Shown one piece after another: positions 55,647-61,742 of a DNA stretch of 64,000 nucleotides (its first letter is position 1; each line of letters starts with the position of its first letter). Where the stretch lies: positions 1,364,001 through 1,428,000 of the forward strand of contig NZ_JANHDH010000001.1 in the NCBI RefSeq assembly GCF_026616195.1, given 5' to 3'. The notes below the pieces were generated by a model, which made no database searches, had not been told where the DNA came from, and was given only the letters and a program-made list of their open reading frames with translations. Origin of the DNA: Haloarchaeobius amylolyticus. Its GTDB lineage: Archaea; Halobacteriota; Halobacteria; Halobacteriales; Natrialbaceae. Made by a program: the position numbers and the translations under genes.

Positions 55647-56354
55647 ATGAGCGCACCAGAACCATCCTTCTCCGAGACACCGGCCGCCTGGCATCAGACC
55701 GTCGACGCGGACGACTGGGACGACATCTACGTCGTCGGCGACGTGCACGGGTGCTTCGACGCGCTGCAGCGACTCCTCCAGCGAATCGACCCGGGCGAGG
55801 ACGACCTCGTCGTCTTCGTCGGTGACCTCGTCCGCAAGGGCCCGAACAGCCGCGGCGTGGTCCAGCTGGTCCGCGAGTCGCCCAACATGCTGTCGGTCCG
55901 TGGGAACAACGAGGAGAAACTGCTCCGCGGCGAGAAGGAGCTCGACGAGCTGAGCGCGGTCGACATGGAGTACATCGCCTCGATGCCGGTCGCCATCTCC
56001 TTCGACGAGGCGCTGGTCGTCCACGGCGGCATCGACCCGCGCAAGCCGCTCGCCGACCACAGCGTCGACGACGTCCAGAACATGCGCTCGCTCGCCCCCG
56101 ACGGGAGCTACGACCGCCCCTTCTGGTTCGAACGGCACGCCGAGACGCCGACCGTCTTCTTCGGCCACACCGTCCTCGCCGAGCCGGTCGACCGCGAGTA
56201 CGCCATCGGCCTCGACACCGGCTGCGTCTACGGCGGGGAGCTGACCGCCTACGACTACTGGGCCGACGAGTACATCACCGTCCCCCTCGACCGCGAGGGT
56301 AAGGGCCGCAAGTCGTCGAAAATCGTCACCCCGCCCGAGCCTAACACCGCATAA
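55647..56354 (+). CDS. Metallophosphoesterase (PP/ApaH-like)
   Basis: A 235-residue calcineurin-fold phosphatase. All five metal motifs are present: GDVHG, GDLVRKGPNS, RGNNE, the His in VVHGGIDP, and FGHT, ending with GLDTGCVYGG. The closest families are PrpE/ApaH-type bis(5'-nucleosyl)tetraphosphatases and PPP Ser/Thr phosphatases; motif GDLVRKG favours the bacterial-type PPP branch. It stands alone, 151 bases divergent from map. Confidence 0.9.
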   Translation: MSAPEPSFSETPAAWHQTVDADDWDDIYVVGDVHGCFDALQRLLQRIDPGEDDLVVFVGDLVRKGPNSRGVVQLVRESPNMLSVRGNNEEKLLRGEKELDELSAVDMEYIASMPVAISFDEALVVHGGIDPRKPLADHSVDDVQNMRSLAPDGSYDRPFWFERHAETPTVFFGHTVLAEPVDREYAIGLDTGCVYGGELTAYDYWADEYITVPLDREGKGRKSSKIVTPPEPNTA

Positions 56355-56406
56355 GAAGCAGTTCCGGCCGCCCGGTTCCACACCGCCCGACTCTCGGCCT
56401 CGCGGG

Positions 56407-56535
56407 TCAGTTCGGGGCGTCGCGGCCGTCGACCCACGCACACTGCGGGCAGGCGTCGACACCCTGGACGTTCACGGTCTCTTCCTCGCACTCGGGGCAC
56501 CGGCGTGTGTCACCGTGCTGGGTCTGCTCGAGCAT
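56407..56535 (-). CDS. Very small zinc-finger protein (42 residues)
   Basis: Found by direct reading: ATG at 56533-56535 to TGA at 56407-56409. The protein begins [20 protein letters not shown] and ends [16 protein letters not shown], with CPEC and CPQC forming one zinc finger. It belongs to the class of haloarchaeal CPxCG micro-proteins. The high-quality TATA box at the right distance and intact coding strongly support it as a real gene although it is so short. Confidence 0.85.
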
Positions 56536-57121: not shown

Positions 57122-58003
57122 CTAGCGCGAGACGGCAGTCTGCATCGCGTCGGAGTTGAACGCGCTGCCGGCACTCCCGTCGCGGTCGAGGACGATGATG
57201 CCCGCGTTCGAGCCGGTGAGTTCGCCGAACTCGTCGATGGCGAGGTCGGCCGCGGCCTGTGCGGAGTGGCCCGATTCGAGGTGGCGGACCGCCCGCCGGG
57301 AGAGGGTGACCCGGGCGATGTCCTCGCCGGCGCCCGTGGCGGAGGCGCCGCCGGCCGGGGAGCAGTAGAAGCCGTTACCGACCTGGGGCACGTCGCCGAC
57401 CCGGCCCGCGAGCGCGAGCCAGCGCCCGCCGGTCGAGGTCGCGGCGGCGAAGGAGTCGCCGTCGAAGGCGACCGCGCCGACCGTGTCGTGATCGAACTCC
57501 GCCGGGTTGCCGTCCGGGTCCGTCGTCCCGAACCGCTCTTCCAGGTAGGCGAGGTGCTCTTTGGCCCCGCCCTCCGGGACGTCCTCCTCGGCCCAGCGCT
57601 CCCGGGTGCGGTCGCTGAACAGGTCGACGCCGGTCTCGACGCCGAAGTCCTCGGCGAGGGCGACGGCGTGCTCGCCCGAGACGCAGATGTGCGGCGTCTC
57701 CTCCATGACGGTGCGGGCGACGCTGACGGCGTGTTCGACGCCCGGCATGGAGCAGGCCGCGCCGGTCTCGCGGTCGTCGGTCATGACGCCCGCGTCGGTG
57801 CGGACCACGCCGTCGGACTGCACGGCCCCGCCGAAGCCCGCGTTGAACCGGGGCGACGACTCGAGGACGTGGATGGCCTGTTCGACCGCGTCGACCGGCG
57901 TCTCGGCGGCGGCACCGGCCCCGGCGGCCTCGTCGAGTACTCCCTGTCGTGTCTCCGGGTCGTCGGGGTTCGCACCCGCGCCCCCGTGGACGATGACGTG
58001 CAT
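57122..58003 (-). CDS. Isoaspartyl peptidase/L-asparaginase, plant-type Ntn hydrolase
   Basis: Autoproteolytic enzyme that cleaves isoaspartyl dipeptides and asparagine. The 293 residues start MHVIVHGGAGANPDD; NAGFGGAVQSDG is a conserved loop. The nucleophile is Thr174 in FDHDTVGAVAFDGD, which becomes N-terminal after self-cleavage. The first part (1-173) would be the alpha chain. It could recycle damaged isoaspartyl peptides, for example those imported by the dpp system, but the two loci are far apart. Confidence 0.92.
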   Translation of the reverse strand: MHVIVHGGAGANPDDPETRQGVLDEAAGAGAAAETPVDAVEQAIHVLESSPRFNAGFGGAVQSDGVVRTDAGVMTDDRETGAACSMPGVEHAVSVARTVMEETPHICVSGEHAVALAEDFGVETGVDLFSDRTRERWAEEDVPEGGAKEHLAYLEERFGTTDPDGNPAEFDHDTVGAVAFDGDSFAAATSTGGRWLALAGRVGDVPQVGNGFYCSPAGGASATGAGEDIARVTLSRRAVRHLESGHSAQAAADLAIDEFGELTGSNAGIIVLDRDGSAGSAFNSDAMQTAVSR

Positions 58004-58035: not shown

Positions 58036-58084
58036 TCGCGACCGCGGCCCGTCCCGGGAACCCATGGGAATCACCAACACGGTC

Positions 58085-58105
58085 GCCAGCAGTATAGCTG
58101 CTGGC
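58085..58105. repeat. Perfect 8-bp inverted repeat upstream of the two-gene cassette
   Basis: GCCAGCAG (58085-58092) and CTGCTGGC (58098-58105) with loop TATAG. It lies 133-153 bases before the ATG at 58238. Confidence 0.65.
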
Positions 58106-58154
58106 ATGACCAGTAAAGATTCAGTAAGCTCTTTCATTACCGATTGCGATATAT

Positions 58155-58168
58155 GGCGCTTTAGCGCC
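58155..58168. repeat. Perfect 6-bp inverted repeat upstream of the two-gene cassette
   Basis: GGCGCT (58155-58160) and AGCGCC (58163-58168) with loop TT. It lies 70-83 bases before the ATG at 58238. Confidence 0.55.
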
Positions 58169-58237
58169 CAGAGACAGAGTTCTAGCGCATTTACACTTGC
58201 ATAAAGATTGTAGTAATATCAGATTAATTCTCACTAT

Positions 58238-60085
58238 ATGAGTGGTGAAGACCCACTCGTGCAGTACGAGTCCGGCGGCCAGGCATCGGTCATCAACTAC
58301 AACATCCCACTGCCCACGTCCTACGGGTGTCGCAGCATCGTCGAACTCGACTTCCCGTCGTCGTACTTCCGCTCGCACGCCGACGAGAAACCGGGCAGCA
58401 CCATCCGCGACGACCTCGCGGACCGACCCATCGAGGACATCCGCGACCGGGTCGCACAGGCGATGCGAGAGGGGTTCTACGACCCGATCCTGTTCGAGCA
58501 CATCGACATCGGACAGGAGTCCCCGGTCCAGCCCGGCGGCCCGCAGCCCGTCGACCCCGCCCCGTGGGGCGGCGACGGTGCCCGCGGCGGGGCCATCGAC
58601 CGGTCGGAGATGAGCGACACGGTCCGGGAGATCGTCGAGTCCCCGGCGGCCATGGACGCGCTCGCCGAACACATCAGACTGCGCGACCTCCAGAACGTAC
58701 GGACCGACGGGGGCGCGGCCGCGGCGGCCGCAGGCGCCATCGAGCAGGAGTCCCTCGGCGAGTTCGACTACGACGACTACCTCTCCGTGAAGAACTACTT
58801 CCGGCCGGTCGCCTCCCTGACACCGGAGCAGGTCGCCCGACGGGTGAAGGACGGCCAGTTCATGTACCTCCGGTCGACGCTCCACGGCGACGTGGTGCCG
58901 GGGTTCGCCCCGGAGCCGGTCGAGCCCGAGCCGCAGTTCGCCATCGTCGAGCGCTACCGCATCTCGAACTTCCTCGGGAACTACGGCGCCGGGCGGACGC
59001 TGAAGACGTTCTCGCTGTTCCCCGGCGAGGAGACCACCATCACCCTGAAGACGTACCGCAACGAGAAACGCTCCCGGCAGGAGGCCGCGAGCATCTTCGA
59101 GTCGAGTTCGCGCGAGGCCGCCTACGAGTTCGAGCGCGAGCTCCAGACCGAGACCACCTCCAGCGTCAAGGAGACGAAGAAACGCAACTGGAAGGCCGGC
59201 GGCAAGGCCGAACTCAACCTCGGCATCTTCAAGGTCGGTGGCGGCGGCGGCGGTGGCGGGAGTTCGACCGCCGTGCGCGAGCACACGGCCCGGTCGGTCG
59301 CAAGCGCCTCCTCGCGGCACGCCGCGAAGGCCTCCGCCAAGCGCGAGGTCGAGGTCAACAGCGAGGCGAAGGAGTCCGTCGAGACGGGCGAGGAGCGGCT
59401 CATCGAGCGCAAGATCGAGAACATCAACGTGAGCCGGACGCTCAACCTCGTCTTCCGGCAGCTGAACCAGCAGTACCTCACGCTGTTCCACCTCACCGAC
59501 GTTCGCATCGCGTTCTCGAACGGCTTCCCCGGCAGCTACCGGGAGGCACCGCTGTACGAACTCGACCAGCTGGTCGACGACGTGGTGACCGACGACGACC
59601 AGGCCGCGGTCAAGCAGGGCATCCTCGAGGAGCTCTCGCGCATCTACGACTACCGCGGCGAGGCCCACGACGACTTCGTCGAACAGGTCGAGCGCGGCGA
59701 CCACAGCTACTGGCGGGTCAACGAGGACCTGGAGACGACGTTCGAGGACGAGGCGACCGGACTGAGCAAGACGGTCCCCGGCGTCGTGCTCTCGGGCACG
59801 GTCAACGCCATCCGGACCGACGGCGTCATCGTGGAGGCCCTGCTCGGCCGCGGCGAGGCGCTGGACGACTACTCGCAGGCGCTCCAGTCCGAGGCCGTCC
59901 GGGCGCGCGACCTGAACAACGACCTGCTCGCGACCGAGATCGACCGGGCCGAACTCGGCATGGAACTCGTCGAGAACGACGACAACGAGGGCGCGGCCGT
60001 CTACCACAAGGTGTTCGCCGAGGAGGAAGAGGACGAGGACGAGGCCGAGGCGGAGCCGATAGAGCGGCGCACGGACGATGACTGA
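58238..60085 (+). CDS. Unrecognised 615-residue protein with long charged helical hairpin, cassette gene 1
   Basis: I do not recognise a characterised family. There is no signal peptide or membrane helix. Residues 17-45 are beta-like (ASVINYNIPLPTSYGCRSIV). After a disordered linker (95-170), a beta segment ends in KTFSLFPGEETTITLKTYRN (257-274). A charged helix (275-318) and a turn with nine glycines (334-341 region) lead into a second charged, Ala/Ser-rich helix (344-420) that ends SRTLNLVFRQLNQQYLTLFH. The C-terminus (590-615) is acidic. The helix-glycine-helix layout suggests a hairpin or coiled-coil assembly, perhaps membrane-active. I recall similar unannotated bacterial proteins but cannot name them. 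Confidence 0.8.
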   Translation: MSGEDPLVQYESGGQASVINYNIPLPTSYGCRSIVELDFPSSYFRSHADEKPGSTIRDDLADRPIEDIRDRVAQAMREGFYDPILFEHIDIGQESPVQPGGPQPVDPAPWGGDGARGGAIDRSEMSDTVREIVESPAAMDALAEHIRLRDLQNVRTDGGAAAAAAGAIEQESLGEFDYDDYLSVKNYFRPVASLTPEQVARRVKDGQFMYLRSTLHGDVVPGFAPEPVEPEPQFAIVERYRISNFLGNYGAGRTLKTFSLFPGEETTITLKTYRNEKRSRQEAASIFESSSREAAYEFERELQTETTSSVKETKKRNWKAGGKAELNLGIFKVGGGGGGGGSSTAVREHTARSVASASSRHAAKASAKREVEVNSEAKESVETGEERLIERKIENINVSRTLNLVFRQLNQQYLTLFHLTDVRIAFSNGFPGSYREAPLYELDQLVDDVVTDDDQAAVKQGILEELSRIYDYRGEAHDDFVEQVERGDHSYWRVNEDLETTFEDEATGLSKTVPGVVLSGTVNAIRTDGVIVEALLGRGEALDDYSQALQSEAVRARDLNNDLLATEIDRAELGMELVENDDNEGAAVYHKVFAEEEEDEDEAEAEPIERRTDDD

Positions 60086-60983
60086 CGGCCTCTTCGGCAA
60101 CCGGCGCCGACTCCTCGCCCAGAACGCTCGCCGGAACGAGGACGCGGTGACCCACGACGACGCCACGAGCGACACCGGGTTCACCCCCTACACCGGCGAC
60201 ACCGGGACCGCCGACGCCGGTTCTGCGGACGCGTCGGCGTCGACCGCGAGCACGAAGCAACGCGTGGAACGCGTCCGCCAGAAGGTCGAGGCGCTCATCG
60301 AGGGCGGCCGCGCGAACGGTTACGACCTCGCCGCCCAGAACCTCGAGGACTGGCTCGAAGAGACCTACGCGAACGGGACGAAGACGGTCCCCGCGGCACA
60401 TTTCAAGACCTCCCCGGACATCCAGCAGGCGCTCGTCTCGGAACACCGACCCAAGATCGTCGAGGGTGCCCGGAAGCGCCTCCACGGCAGCGTGGACGAG
60501 AAGTTCCCGAAACAGCGGTTCGACCTGCTCTGTGGCGACATGCAGGTCGGGCCAGCCCCGAACACGCTGAAGACGACGAAGCCCGCGAACGTCGGGCGGG
60601 CGACGCTGTACTGGGACGAATCCGTCACCCTGAGCGACGAGCTGTTCTACGCCTTCGGCGGCGTCACGGTCCACTCCGAGGTCGAGCTACGCGCCCAGCT
60701 GGCCGGCCAGGACCTCGCCGACGGCTGGACCGTCGAGGTGCTCTCGTGGACCTGCCAGGTCTGTGACCGCTACAACTGGGACGCGAACAAGGCCACGCTG
60801 ATTCCCGGCTTCGGCAACGTCTCCGACGCGGAGCTGAAGATCCTGGAGGAACACGGGCAGGCGGCTCCCTACGACGTTCGCTCCGAGGAGTGGTCGGTGT
60901 CGGACCCACGCGTCGTCGGGACGTTCGACGTGGCTGGCCCGCCAGGCGCGACGCAGGAGTCGCAGTCGCAGGGACAGCAGTAG
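60078..60983 (+). CDS. Unrecognised 301-residue protein with CxxC motif, cassette gene 2
   Basis: Its ATG overlaps the stop of cassette gene 1 (ATGACTGA), so the two are translationally coupled. Residues 28-60 are a Thr/Asp/Ala-rich disordered linker, and 60-140 are helical (VERVRQKVEALIEGGRANGY). Residues 175-275 are beta-rich with WTVEVLSWTCQVCDRYNWDA (217-236) followed by LIPGFGNVSDAELKILEEHG and PYDVRSEEW. That last block is like the C-terminal block of some uncharacterised bacterial proteins (typically with DxYDWH and a final AKPF-type motif), by my recollection. The Gln/Ser tail is disordered. No signal peptide. Function unknown. Confidence 0.78.
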   Translation: MTDGLFGNRRRLLAQNARRNEDAVTHDDATSDTGFTPYTGDTGTADAGSADASASTASTKQRVERVRQKVEALIEGGRANGYDLAAQNLEDWLEETYANGTKTVPAAHFKTSPDIQQALVSEHRPKIVEGARKRLHGSVDEKFPKQRFDLLCGDMQVGPAPNTLKTTKPANVGRATLYWDESVTLSDELFYAFGGVTVHSEVELRAQLAGQDLADGWTVEVLSWTCQVCDRYNWDANKATLIPGFGNVSDAELKILEEHGQAAPYDVRSEEWSVSDPRVVGTFDVAGPPGATQESQSQGQQ

Positions 60984-61034: not shown

Positions 61035-61742
61035 ATGCCGGTGTACGACCGAGGCCACGCGACCGACTACGCGGTCGTCGACGAGTTCGACGGCGGCGTC
61101 GGCTGGCTCGCCCACCCCGACGAAGAAGGCAAACGTACCAGCCACGCGATCCGCGGCGACGACGGGCGCGTCTGGCTGTTCGACCCCATCGACGCCGAGG
61201 GTATCGAGGACGTGTACGCCGACCTCGGCGAGGTGGCGGGCGTCGCCGTCTGCTCGAGCTGGCACGCCCGCGACGCCGCCACCTTCGCCCGACGCCACGA
61301 CGTGCCGGTGTACGCCCCGACGTGGCTGGGGCGGGTGGGCGACCTGCTCGACGCGCCCATCGAACGCTACGAGGGCGAACTCGGCACCTCGGGCTTCGCG
61401 GTCCGCCGGGTCGACCCCCTCCCGGGCTGGCAGGAGGCCGTCTGCTTCCGAGCGTCGGACCGGACCCTCTACGTCCCGGACGTGCTGAGCACGGCGATGA
61501 AGTCCTGCGTCGGCGACGAGCGCATCGGCCTCTTCCTGTTCGCGCGGTTCTTCCCGCCCCGGGCGGCGTTCGCCGACTGGCACCCCGACCGCATCCTCGT
61601 CGGCCACGGGACCGGCGTGTTCGAGGACGCCGACGCCGCCCTGCAGGACGCCCTCGCCGGTGCCCGCCGCCGCCTCCCGCGCGGACTACTCACGCGCGGG
61701 CCGGCACAGGTACGCGCGATGCTCGGGGCGGTGCGGGACTGA
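61035..61742 (+). CDS. Degenerate metallo-beta-lactamase-like protein
   Basis: A 235-residue cytoplasmic protein. The order of elements follows the metallo-beta-lactamase fold: VWLFDPIDAEGIEDVYADLG, then SSWHARDAATFARRHDVPVY where the HxHxDH metal motif should be, TLYVPDVLST for the later Asp, and ILVGHGTGVFED for the final His. Of the first motif only one His and one Asp remain (S-W-H-A-R-D), so a normal two-metal site is unlikely. It may have one metal or be non-enzymatic. Role unknown. Confidence 0.65.
   Translation: MPVYDRGHATDYAVVDEFDGGVGWLAHPDEEGKRTSHAIRGDDGRVWLFDPIDAEGIEDVYADLGEVAGVAVCSSWHARDAATFARRHDVPVYAPTWLGRVGDLLDAPIERYEGELGTSGFAVRRVDPLPGWQEAVCFRASDRTLYVPDVLSTAMKSCVGDERIGLFLFARFFPPRAAFADWHPDRILVGHGTGVFEDADAALQDALAGARRRLPRGLLTRGPAQVRAMLGAVRD

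What the first reader, a model, noticed from the sequence alone, without database searches (positions are those of the whole stretch)
58238..60983. Overlapping two-gene cassette of unrecognised proteins, a candidate undescribed system
Two genes overlap by 8 bases and encode a 615-residue protein with a helix-(Gly)9-helix core and a 301-residue protein with a CxxC-containing beta domain. Neither has a signal peptide or belongs to a family I can name, and both look well conserved rather than decayed. They share an AT-rich upstream region with two hairpins. I recall remotely similar bacterial proteins (PGE..T strand before charged helices; DxYDWH-like block). This raises the possibility of a cross-domain transferred module such as a toxin, pore-former, phage-tail-like particle or membrane-repair system. 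Any function is inference.
Basis: partly seen in the sequence, partly recalled or inferred. Interest (0 to 1): 0.75.

Follow-up and report, generated by a model that had tools for sequence, protein, structure and literature searches.

The report
Carrier protein with swappable toxin gene
A salt-loving archaeon carries a two-gene cassette in which the first gene belongs to an undescribed protein family found across Bacteria and Archaea and the second gene is a swappable 'cargo', in relatives often a bacterial-cell-wall enzyme or toxin, so the pair is probably a compact antagonistic weapon that works without a secretion machine.

Summary
In detail: two ORFs overlap by 8 nt; neither has a signal peptide or a Pfam/NCBIfam match. 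Gene 1 (615 aa) belongs to an undescribed family with 88 tblastn-confirmed loci in GTDB contigs (many bacterial phyla, Lokiarchaeota, haloarchaea). Directly downstream lies nearly always one gene (74 of 81 loci, gap -60 to +100 nt), unrelated from locus to locus: Tae4 amidase, Ntox44, M15/VanY/M74/M23 peptidases, Fic, OmpA, GH5, even a Hedgehog domain. Carriers 84-98% identical carry unrelated cargo. Many Bacteroidota loci add an exported third gene (candidate immunity); haloarchaeal loci do not. The window's own cargo has one known relative, in a Cohnella carrier locus. The window's genome lacks a contractile sheath; 28 carrier genomes searched lack a T6SS sheath. Five congeners have the empty site, and haloarchaeal carriers are not one clade (AU p=0.008). 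Best reading: a carrier-cargo antagonistic system whose carrier is probably a beta-hairpin membrane-inserting protein. The carrier-cargo architecture is well supported; the toxin role is likely; pore formation is inferred, because the fold match to aerolysin-type toxins is weak. The activity of the window's cargo is unknown.

The parts
58080..58237 (+). AT-rich upstream region (42% GC), presumed promoter region of the cassette
   Evidence: composition; promoter role inferred
58085..58105 (.). perfect hairpin GCCAGCAG-5 nt-CTGCTGGC
   Evidence: inverted-repeat scan; function unknown
58155..58168 (.). perfect hairpin GGCGCT-TT-AGCGCC
   Evidence: inverted-repeat scan; function unknown
58238..60085 (+). 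gene 1, 'carrier', 615 aa, conserved member of an undescribed family
   Evidence: ORF; homologs; no Pfam/NCBIfam; model
58250..58378 (+). carrier N-terminal conserved segment, residues 5-47 (PLVQY..GG.A..NYN.P.PTSY), followed by a region of variable length that in about ten other carriers holds Ig-like and in two LamG-like domains
   Evidence: alignments, Pfam scan of the family
58934..59845 (+). carrier beta core, residues 233-536, with very long strands (233-260, 402-427, 516-536)
   Evidence: AlphaFold2 models
59060..59407 (+). core insertion, residues 275-390 (116 aa; the same length in 26 of 57 aligned members), polar and Ser/Thr-rich
   Evidence: alignment A2
59180..59260 (+). tip of the insertion, residues 315-341: candidate membrane-inserting amphipathic beta-hairpin, with Gly8 in this member
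   Evidence: hydrophobic-moment analysis; low pLDDT in the models
60078..60983 (+). gene 2, 'cargo', 301 aa, presumed effector; 38% identical to the cargo of a Cohnella carrier locus
60078..60257 (+). cargo N-terminal region, residues 1-60 (RRRLLAQNARRNEDAV...), presumed docking segment, not alignable to the Cohnella protein
   Evidence: by analogy with cargo N-termini in other loci; inferred
60255..60938 (+). cargo effector domain, residues 60-287, with the DRYNWD...IP.FG block
   Evidence: conserved with L038; activity unknown

Best explanation
The cassette is one member of a two-gene antagonistic 'carrier plus cargo' system. Gene 1 is a conserved carrier and gene 2 an interchangeable effector. 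Most likely mechanism: (1) both are made in the cytoplasm without signal peptides and released by lysis or an unknown route (inferred); (2) the cargo's variable, probably disordered N-terminus binds the carrier (inferred from short recurring N-terminal motifs and one case of a shared N-terminus with different C-termini); (3) the carrier binds a target surface through its variable N-terminal region (inferred from Ig-like and lectin-like domains in relatives); (4) it oligomerises and refolds its 116-residue insertion into a membrane-inserting beta-hairpin (inferred); (5) the cargo thereby reaches the target's envelope or interior, where in many relatives it would cut peptidoglycan and in others act as another toxin (inferred from cargo families). 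Shown: the carrier-cargo gene pair, cargo turnover under near-constant carriers, absence of signal peptides and of a contractile sheath in the window's genome, horizontal spread. The target of this particular cargo is unknown; rival bacteria are the likeliest guess because many identifiable cargoes in relatives attack peptidoglycan, which haloarchaea lack.
For: Conserved gene 1, adjacent downstream gene in 74/81 loci, with unrelated cargo even under carriers 98% (L074/L077), 88% (L065/L084), 85% (L072/L073) and 84% identical (L065/L069, which share only 45 N-terminal cargo residues). Cargo families: Ntox44, M74, OmpA; Tae4, M23, M15, PG_binding_1, Fic, GH5, Hedgehog; VanY, M15, LysM, weak YkuD. 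Window cargo shares a family with a Cohnella carrier's cargo (E=4e-48). Exported +2 gene in 12 of 23 Bacteroidota loci against 0 of 42 elsewhere. No contractile sheath in the window's genome or in 17 of 28 carrier genomes, no VipB in any. Amphipathic beta tip (23 of 26 members p<0.05). Top Foldseek rows are mostly beta pore-forming toxins, all insignificant. Ig-like and LamG domains in carriers. A distant haloarchaeal relative of the carrier core is fused to OmpA.
Against: No pore, killing or binding has been measured. Fold matches are statistically weak: Foldseek best E 0.049 and 0.092, VIA Z at most 5.0, with unrelated ferredoxin-like and coiled-coil rows close behind. The window's cargo matches no known toxin. 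Some cargoes are not obviously antibacterial (GH5, Hedgehog-like). Outside Bacteroidota no immunity-like gene is seen although most of those bacteria have peptidoglycan. The cargo N-terminal motif is found in only about half of the cargoes, was defined after looking, and is absent from this cargo by the strict pattern. The exported +2 count uses a crude predictor and favours exported candidates where several ORFs compete.
Confidence: 0.62

Rival explanations
1. Gene 1 is a non-pore-forming adaptor or scaffold that displays or loads the effector onto another export route (vesicles, cell surface, unknown secretion), like the adaptor and LXG-type carriers of other effector systems.
For: Fold match to pore-formers is weak; no signal peptides; short recurring N-terminal motifs in cargo suggest docking.
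Against: No common secretion machine: no VipB in any of 28 genomes, sheath in only 10-11 of 28; carriers with Ig-like and LamG domains look extracellular; the insertion tip is amphipathic and alternating.
Confidence: 0.25
2. The pair delivers hydrolytic enzymes for nutrition or envelope remodelling rather than for antagonism: a general extracellular enzyme-anchoring system.
For: Cargo includes a GH5 cellulase, metalloproteases and Hedgehog/DD-peptidase-like domains.
Against: Tae4, Ntox44 and Fic are toxin families; cargo turnover is extreme; exported third genes in Bacteroidota look like immunity; peptidoglycan enzymes occur next to carriers in archaea that have no peptidoglycan.
Confidence: 0.12
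3. The system is aimed at eukaryotes (protists, invertebrates) as a binary pore-forming toxin, not at prokaryotes.
For: Nearest folds, all weak, are aerolysin-type toxins that mostly act on animal cells; Paenibacillus and Cohnella loci share a conserved helical cargo family and about ten carriers of the family have Ig-like domains.
Against: Many cargoes attack peptidoglycan.
Confidence: 0.1

Closest known systems
Polymorphic toxin systems (PMC3482391)
   Same: Conserved delivery part with a variable, recombining effector part; effector families Ntox44, Fic and similar; downstream immunity-like genes in Bacteroidota.
   Different: Carrier and effector are separate genes; carrier family is undescribed; no signal peptide or dedicated secretion system; many identified cargoes are peptidoglycan enzymes; no immunity-like gene in the haloarchaeal loci.
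Aerolysin-type beta pore-forming toxins and binary toxins
   Same: Predicted long beta strands, a polar Ser/Thr-rich insertion with an alternating amphipathic tip, no TM helix; two-gene binder/effector layout as in binary toxins.
   Different: No sequence-family match; fold similarity below significance; insertion flanks predicted helical; cargo slot is open to unrelated enzymes.
T6SS (VgrG/PAAR) and eCIS effector delivery
   Same: Shared effector families (Tae4, peptidoglycan hydrolases); effector gene lies directly beside its carrier.
   Different: No contractile sheath in the window's genome and no VipB in any of 28 carrier genomes; carrier unrelated by sequence.
Archaeal peptidoglycan hydrolases that kill bacteria (PMC12352652)
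   Same: Archaea using bacterial-type wall hydrolases; patchy, probably transferred genes; that paper reports signal peptides in only 32% of archaeal homologs.
   Different: Those tested (Woldo, Danwoldo) carry Tat signals and act alone; here cargo has no signal and comes with a conserved carrier, and the window's own cargo is not a recognised hydrolase.
VARTIG modules of Thermococcales (PMC8416519)
   Same: Archaeal module with a large upstream gene and variable downstream genes, with conflict as one proposed role.
   Different: Hypervariable Ig protein, no counterpart found outside Thermococcales by its authors; homology to the present family was not tested here.

Membership tests
Polymorphic toxin system | Constant delivery region and variable toxin domain within one polypeptide | tested here: not met
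   Carrier and cargo are separate genes in the window and in nearly all loci; one distant haloarchaeal relative is fused to OmpA
Polymorphic toxin system | Toxin swapping between near-identical backbones | tested here: met
   Carriers 84-98% identical with unrelated cargo, in relatives
Polymorphic toxin system | Recognised toxin domain in this member | tested here: not met
   Window cargo has no Pfam, NCBIfam or significant PDB sequence match; relatives do
Polymorphic toxin system | Immunity gene directly downstream | tested here: not met
   Not in the window: the next gene belongs to the flank conserved in G001. Exported +2 genes in 12 of 23 Bacteroidota loci
Aerolysin-type beta pore-forming toxin | Aerolysin fold | tested here: inconclusive
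   Top Foldseek and VIA rows are largely this class but best E 0.05-0.09 and Z at most 5.0
Aerolysin-type beta pore-forming toxin | Amphipathic insertion hairpin between core strands | tested here: met
   Beta moment 0.41 against alpha 0.09 for residues 315-336; 23 of 26 members p<0.05. Sequence pattern only
Aerolysin-type beta pore-forming toxin | Sequence profile of a known pore-forming-toxin family | tested here: not met
   No Pfam pore-forming-toxin family in any of 57 carriers
Aerolysin-type beta pore-forming toxin | Oligomeric pore formation | not testable with these tools
   needs an experiment
T6SS or eCIS effector module | Contractile sheath in the genome | tested here: not met
   No PF04984 or PF05943 in the window's genome
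Secreted archaeal peptidoglycan hydrolase | Peptidoglycan-hydrolase catalytic domain | tested here: not met
   None recognised in the window's cargo; met in haloarchaeon G410, M74
Secreted archaeal peptidoglycan hydrolase | Signal peptide | tested here: not met
   crude predictor; many archaeal homologs in PMC12352652 also lack one
Binary (A/B) toxin | Carrier translocates the enzyme component into a target cell | not testable with these tools
   layout fits; needs an experiment

The most novel reading that the evidence does not exclude
A categorically new, machine-free protein-delivery system: a single carrier family, shared by Bacteria, haloarchaea, Lokiarchaeota and probably at least one giant virus, that docks interchangeable effectors and inserts them through target envelopes, giving archaea a weapon against bacteria and perhaps other cells.
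Probability: 0.3. Interest if true: 0.92.

Novelty: new variant of a known kind. Interest (0 to 1): 0.78.

Why it matters
If right, it adds an undescribed delivery family to microbial warfare that needs no syringe-like machine. It offers a route by which archaeal wall hydrolases without signal peptides could reach bacteria, and a ready-made list of toxin candidates (the +1 genes) and immunity candidates (the +2 genes in Bacteroidota). It also shows a Hedgehog signalling domain as cargo in Paenibacillus, which bears on where animal Hedgehog came from.

Tried and rejected
Single-sequence scans of genome contigs and viral contigs found nothing; the 5-sequence profile succeeded in genome contigs but not in viral contigs. 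Phages: no match. Plasmids: only S. meliloti pAK76. PADLOC: one Cas2-like chance hit. PDB sequence searches: only insignificant matches. An 11-residue EM motif search on cargo N-termini was over-fitted: shuffled sets scored nearly as high; a simpler, post-hoc pattern was tested instead. Gene-2 relatives: none in 125 family genomes beyond a chance-level hit, in viral contigs, in 298 genomes of the Cohnella order other than the Cohnella itself, or in plasmids. Some automatic +1 calls are false (L062 helicase, L041 nitroreductase, very short or poor-scoring ORFs); they were left out of the motif and +2 analyses but are within the 81 loci. Phage-tail and membrane-repair readings were rejected for lack of any supporting gene.

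Full report
Observation. The window is haloarchaeal (genome G000, C1:1364001-1428000). Two ORFs, 58238-60085 (615 aa) and 60078-60983 (301 aa), overlap by 8 nt. Neither matches Pfam or NCBIfam at E up to 10. GC (0.68) and GC3 (0.94, 0.91) fit the genome, whereas the 158 nt upstream are 42% GC and hold two perfect hairpins. The glycine run is 8 long and the CxxC is not conserved.

Gene 1 is a widespread undescribed family. In 391 genomes drawn from the class, strong profile hits occur in four (G000, G030, G294, G410), plus one distant hit, G364. One plasmid, S. meliloti pAK76, has a homolog (E 2e-19). With a 5-sequence profile, 88 loci in GTDB contigs encode relatives, 80 kept: Bacteroidota, Bacillota (Paenibacillus, Cohnella and others), Actinomycetota, Pseudomonadota, Acidobacteriota, Planctomycetota, Cyanobacteriota, Gemmatimonadota, Zixiibacteriota, Lokiarchaeota and two haloarchaeal records (Salinigranum; Halorubrum sp. 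CSM-61, which is the same locus as G294). A structural neighbour with 24% identity over the aligned part exists in a giant virus, Yasminevirus (E 3e-10). None was found in phages or in viral contigs by these scans.

Gene 2 is a cargo slot. In 81 loci with a callable next gene, 74 have it on the same strand within -60 to +100 nt, median gap 11. All-against-all BLAST puts these genes into about 60 unrelated clusters; the largest, 13 members, is a helical family of Paenibacillus, Cohnella and Bacillus. Pfam identifies Ntox44, M74, OmpA; Tae4, M23, M15 with SH3_3 and PG_binding_1, Fic, GH5 and a Hedgehog signalling domain at 3e-50; VanY, M15, LysM, weak YkuD and weak M43. Cargo changes while carriers stay: L074/L077 carriers (same MAG) are 98% identical with unrelated cargo, L065/L084 88%, Lokiarchaeota L072/L073 85%; L065 (Tae4) and L069 carriers are 84% identical and their cargoes share only 45 N-terminal residues, at 80% identity. 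The window's cargo is 38% identical over 235 residues to the cargo of a Cohnella carrier locus, L038 (E 4e-48), whose carrier is 68% identical to that of a Hedgehog-cargo locus (L038/L039). So this cargo family also crosses domains, though carrier and cargo histories need not coincide.

Possible docking signal. The first 60 residues of 51 non-redundant cargoes contain a [polar][VI]L[small/polar] pattern in 27 cases, against a mean of 7.1 and a maximum of 15 in 500 shuffles, and 23% of windows elsewhere. The pattern was chosen after inspection, and the window's cargo has only a related RRRLLAQNARR segment. A second form, NP[WY]...W, occurs in five cargoes. Docking is inferred.

Third gene. An exported-protein ORF starts within -25 to +60 nt of the cargo's end in 12 of 23 Bacteroidota loci and 0 of 42 others (Fisher p 3e-7); against other genes in the same Bacteroidota loci (52 of 181 by the same crude predictor) p is 0.03 for 12/23 and 0.0004 for 12/16. 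These proteins look like immunity proteins for envelope-acting toxins. The window has none: the next gene, 61035-61742, belongs to the flank (below). Haloarchaea have no peptidoglycan (established knowledge) and would not need immunity to wall hydrolases. Bacillota and Actinomycetota loci also lack such a gene, which this reading does not explain.

Carrier anatomy. AlphaFold2 gave pLDDT 75, pTM 0.68 for the full protein and 77, 0.66 for residues 204-598: long strands 233-260, 402-427 and 516-536, with an insertion (275-390) that is exactly 116 residues in 26 members. Its tip (315-336) has a strong beta periodicity (moment 0.41 against 0.09 at the alpha angle; 23 of 26 members p<0.05), for example FEYHAEAEASASWGWGSAKVSGGI (L032). 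Foldseek's top rows are mostly aerolysin-class and MACPF pore-forming toxins, but with E 0.05-0.1 or worse, and VIA Z does not exceed 5.0 with unrelated folds nearby. This is suggestive, not proof. About ten of 57 carriers have Ig-like domains and two a LamG domain, as extracellular binders do. The distant relative in G364 is a 1490-residue protein with a C-terminal OmpA domain, a fusion that supports a functional link between a carrier-type core and such cargo.

No machine. The window's genome has no contractile sheath (PF04984) and no VipB; 11 of 28 carrier genomes have a PF04984 match at E<=0.001 (10 over the cut-off; PF04984 also rings for prophages) and none has VipB. The genome of the Tae4 locus (G429) has neither.

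Mobility. The cassette sits between an asparaginase-2 family gene (57122-58003) and 61035. In G001 the same two flanks are about 210 nt apart; in G005 and G002-G004 the asparaginase gene is followed, after a short gap, by the segment that starts downstream of 61742. All five congeners thus lack the cassette at this place; gain in this lineage is the simplest reading. In a 75-sequence tree the five haloarchaeal carriers need 4 label changes, at least 3 forced by well-supported branches, and holding them together is rejected (AU p 0.008). The window pairs with G410 (SH-aLRT 95).

Mechanism and novelty. The carrier-cargo architecture is well supported. Antagonism is the likeliest use. Pore or hairpin insertion as the delivery step is inferred. 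Literature searches found no description of this family, but only open-licence PMC text was searched. The nearest published context is the finding that archaeal peptidoglycan hydrolases kill bacteria, in which only 32% of archaeal homologs had signal peptides (PMC12352652).

Noticed in passing
L039:10543-11106 and L043:2198-2815 (Paenibacillus): Cargo proteins match the animal Hedgehog amino-terminal signalling domain (PF01085, best E 1.8e-51) directly downstream of carriers; bacterial Hedgehog/DD-peptidase relatives are known (PMC6027127), but as carrier cargo this looks unreported.
   Followed up: partly
L129:7272-11744 (haloarchaeon G364): 1490-aa protein with a distant carrier-like core (profile E 9.6e-9), a glycine-rich hydrophobic insertion and a C-terminal OmpA domain: a possible one-gene version.
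   Followed up: partly
BFVD A0A5K0U6Q4 (Yasminevirus): A giant virus encodes a protein structurally similar to the carrier (24% identity in the aligned part, E 3e-10).
   Followed up: no
L031:9824-10084 (Salinigranum salinum): The gene after this carrier is only 87 aa, arginine-rich at its N-terminus like the window's cargo; it may be a cargo reduced to its N-terminal part.
   Followed up: no
L028, L040, L042, L046-L050, L053, L054, L058, L060, L088: A helical ~240-aa cargo family is stably kept by Paenibacillus and Cohnella carriers, unlike the rapid turnover elsewhere.
   Followed up: no
window 56337-56427 against L125:3137-5330: Congener G005 has about 2.2 kb extra DNA at this point of the otherwise collinear region.
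   Followed up: no
L020:16966-18162 (S. meliloti pAK76): A 398-aa ORF follows the Ntox44 cargo on this conjugative plasmid; no Pfam match.
   Followed up: no
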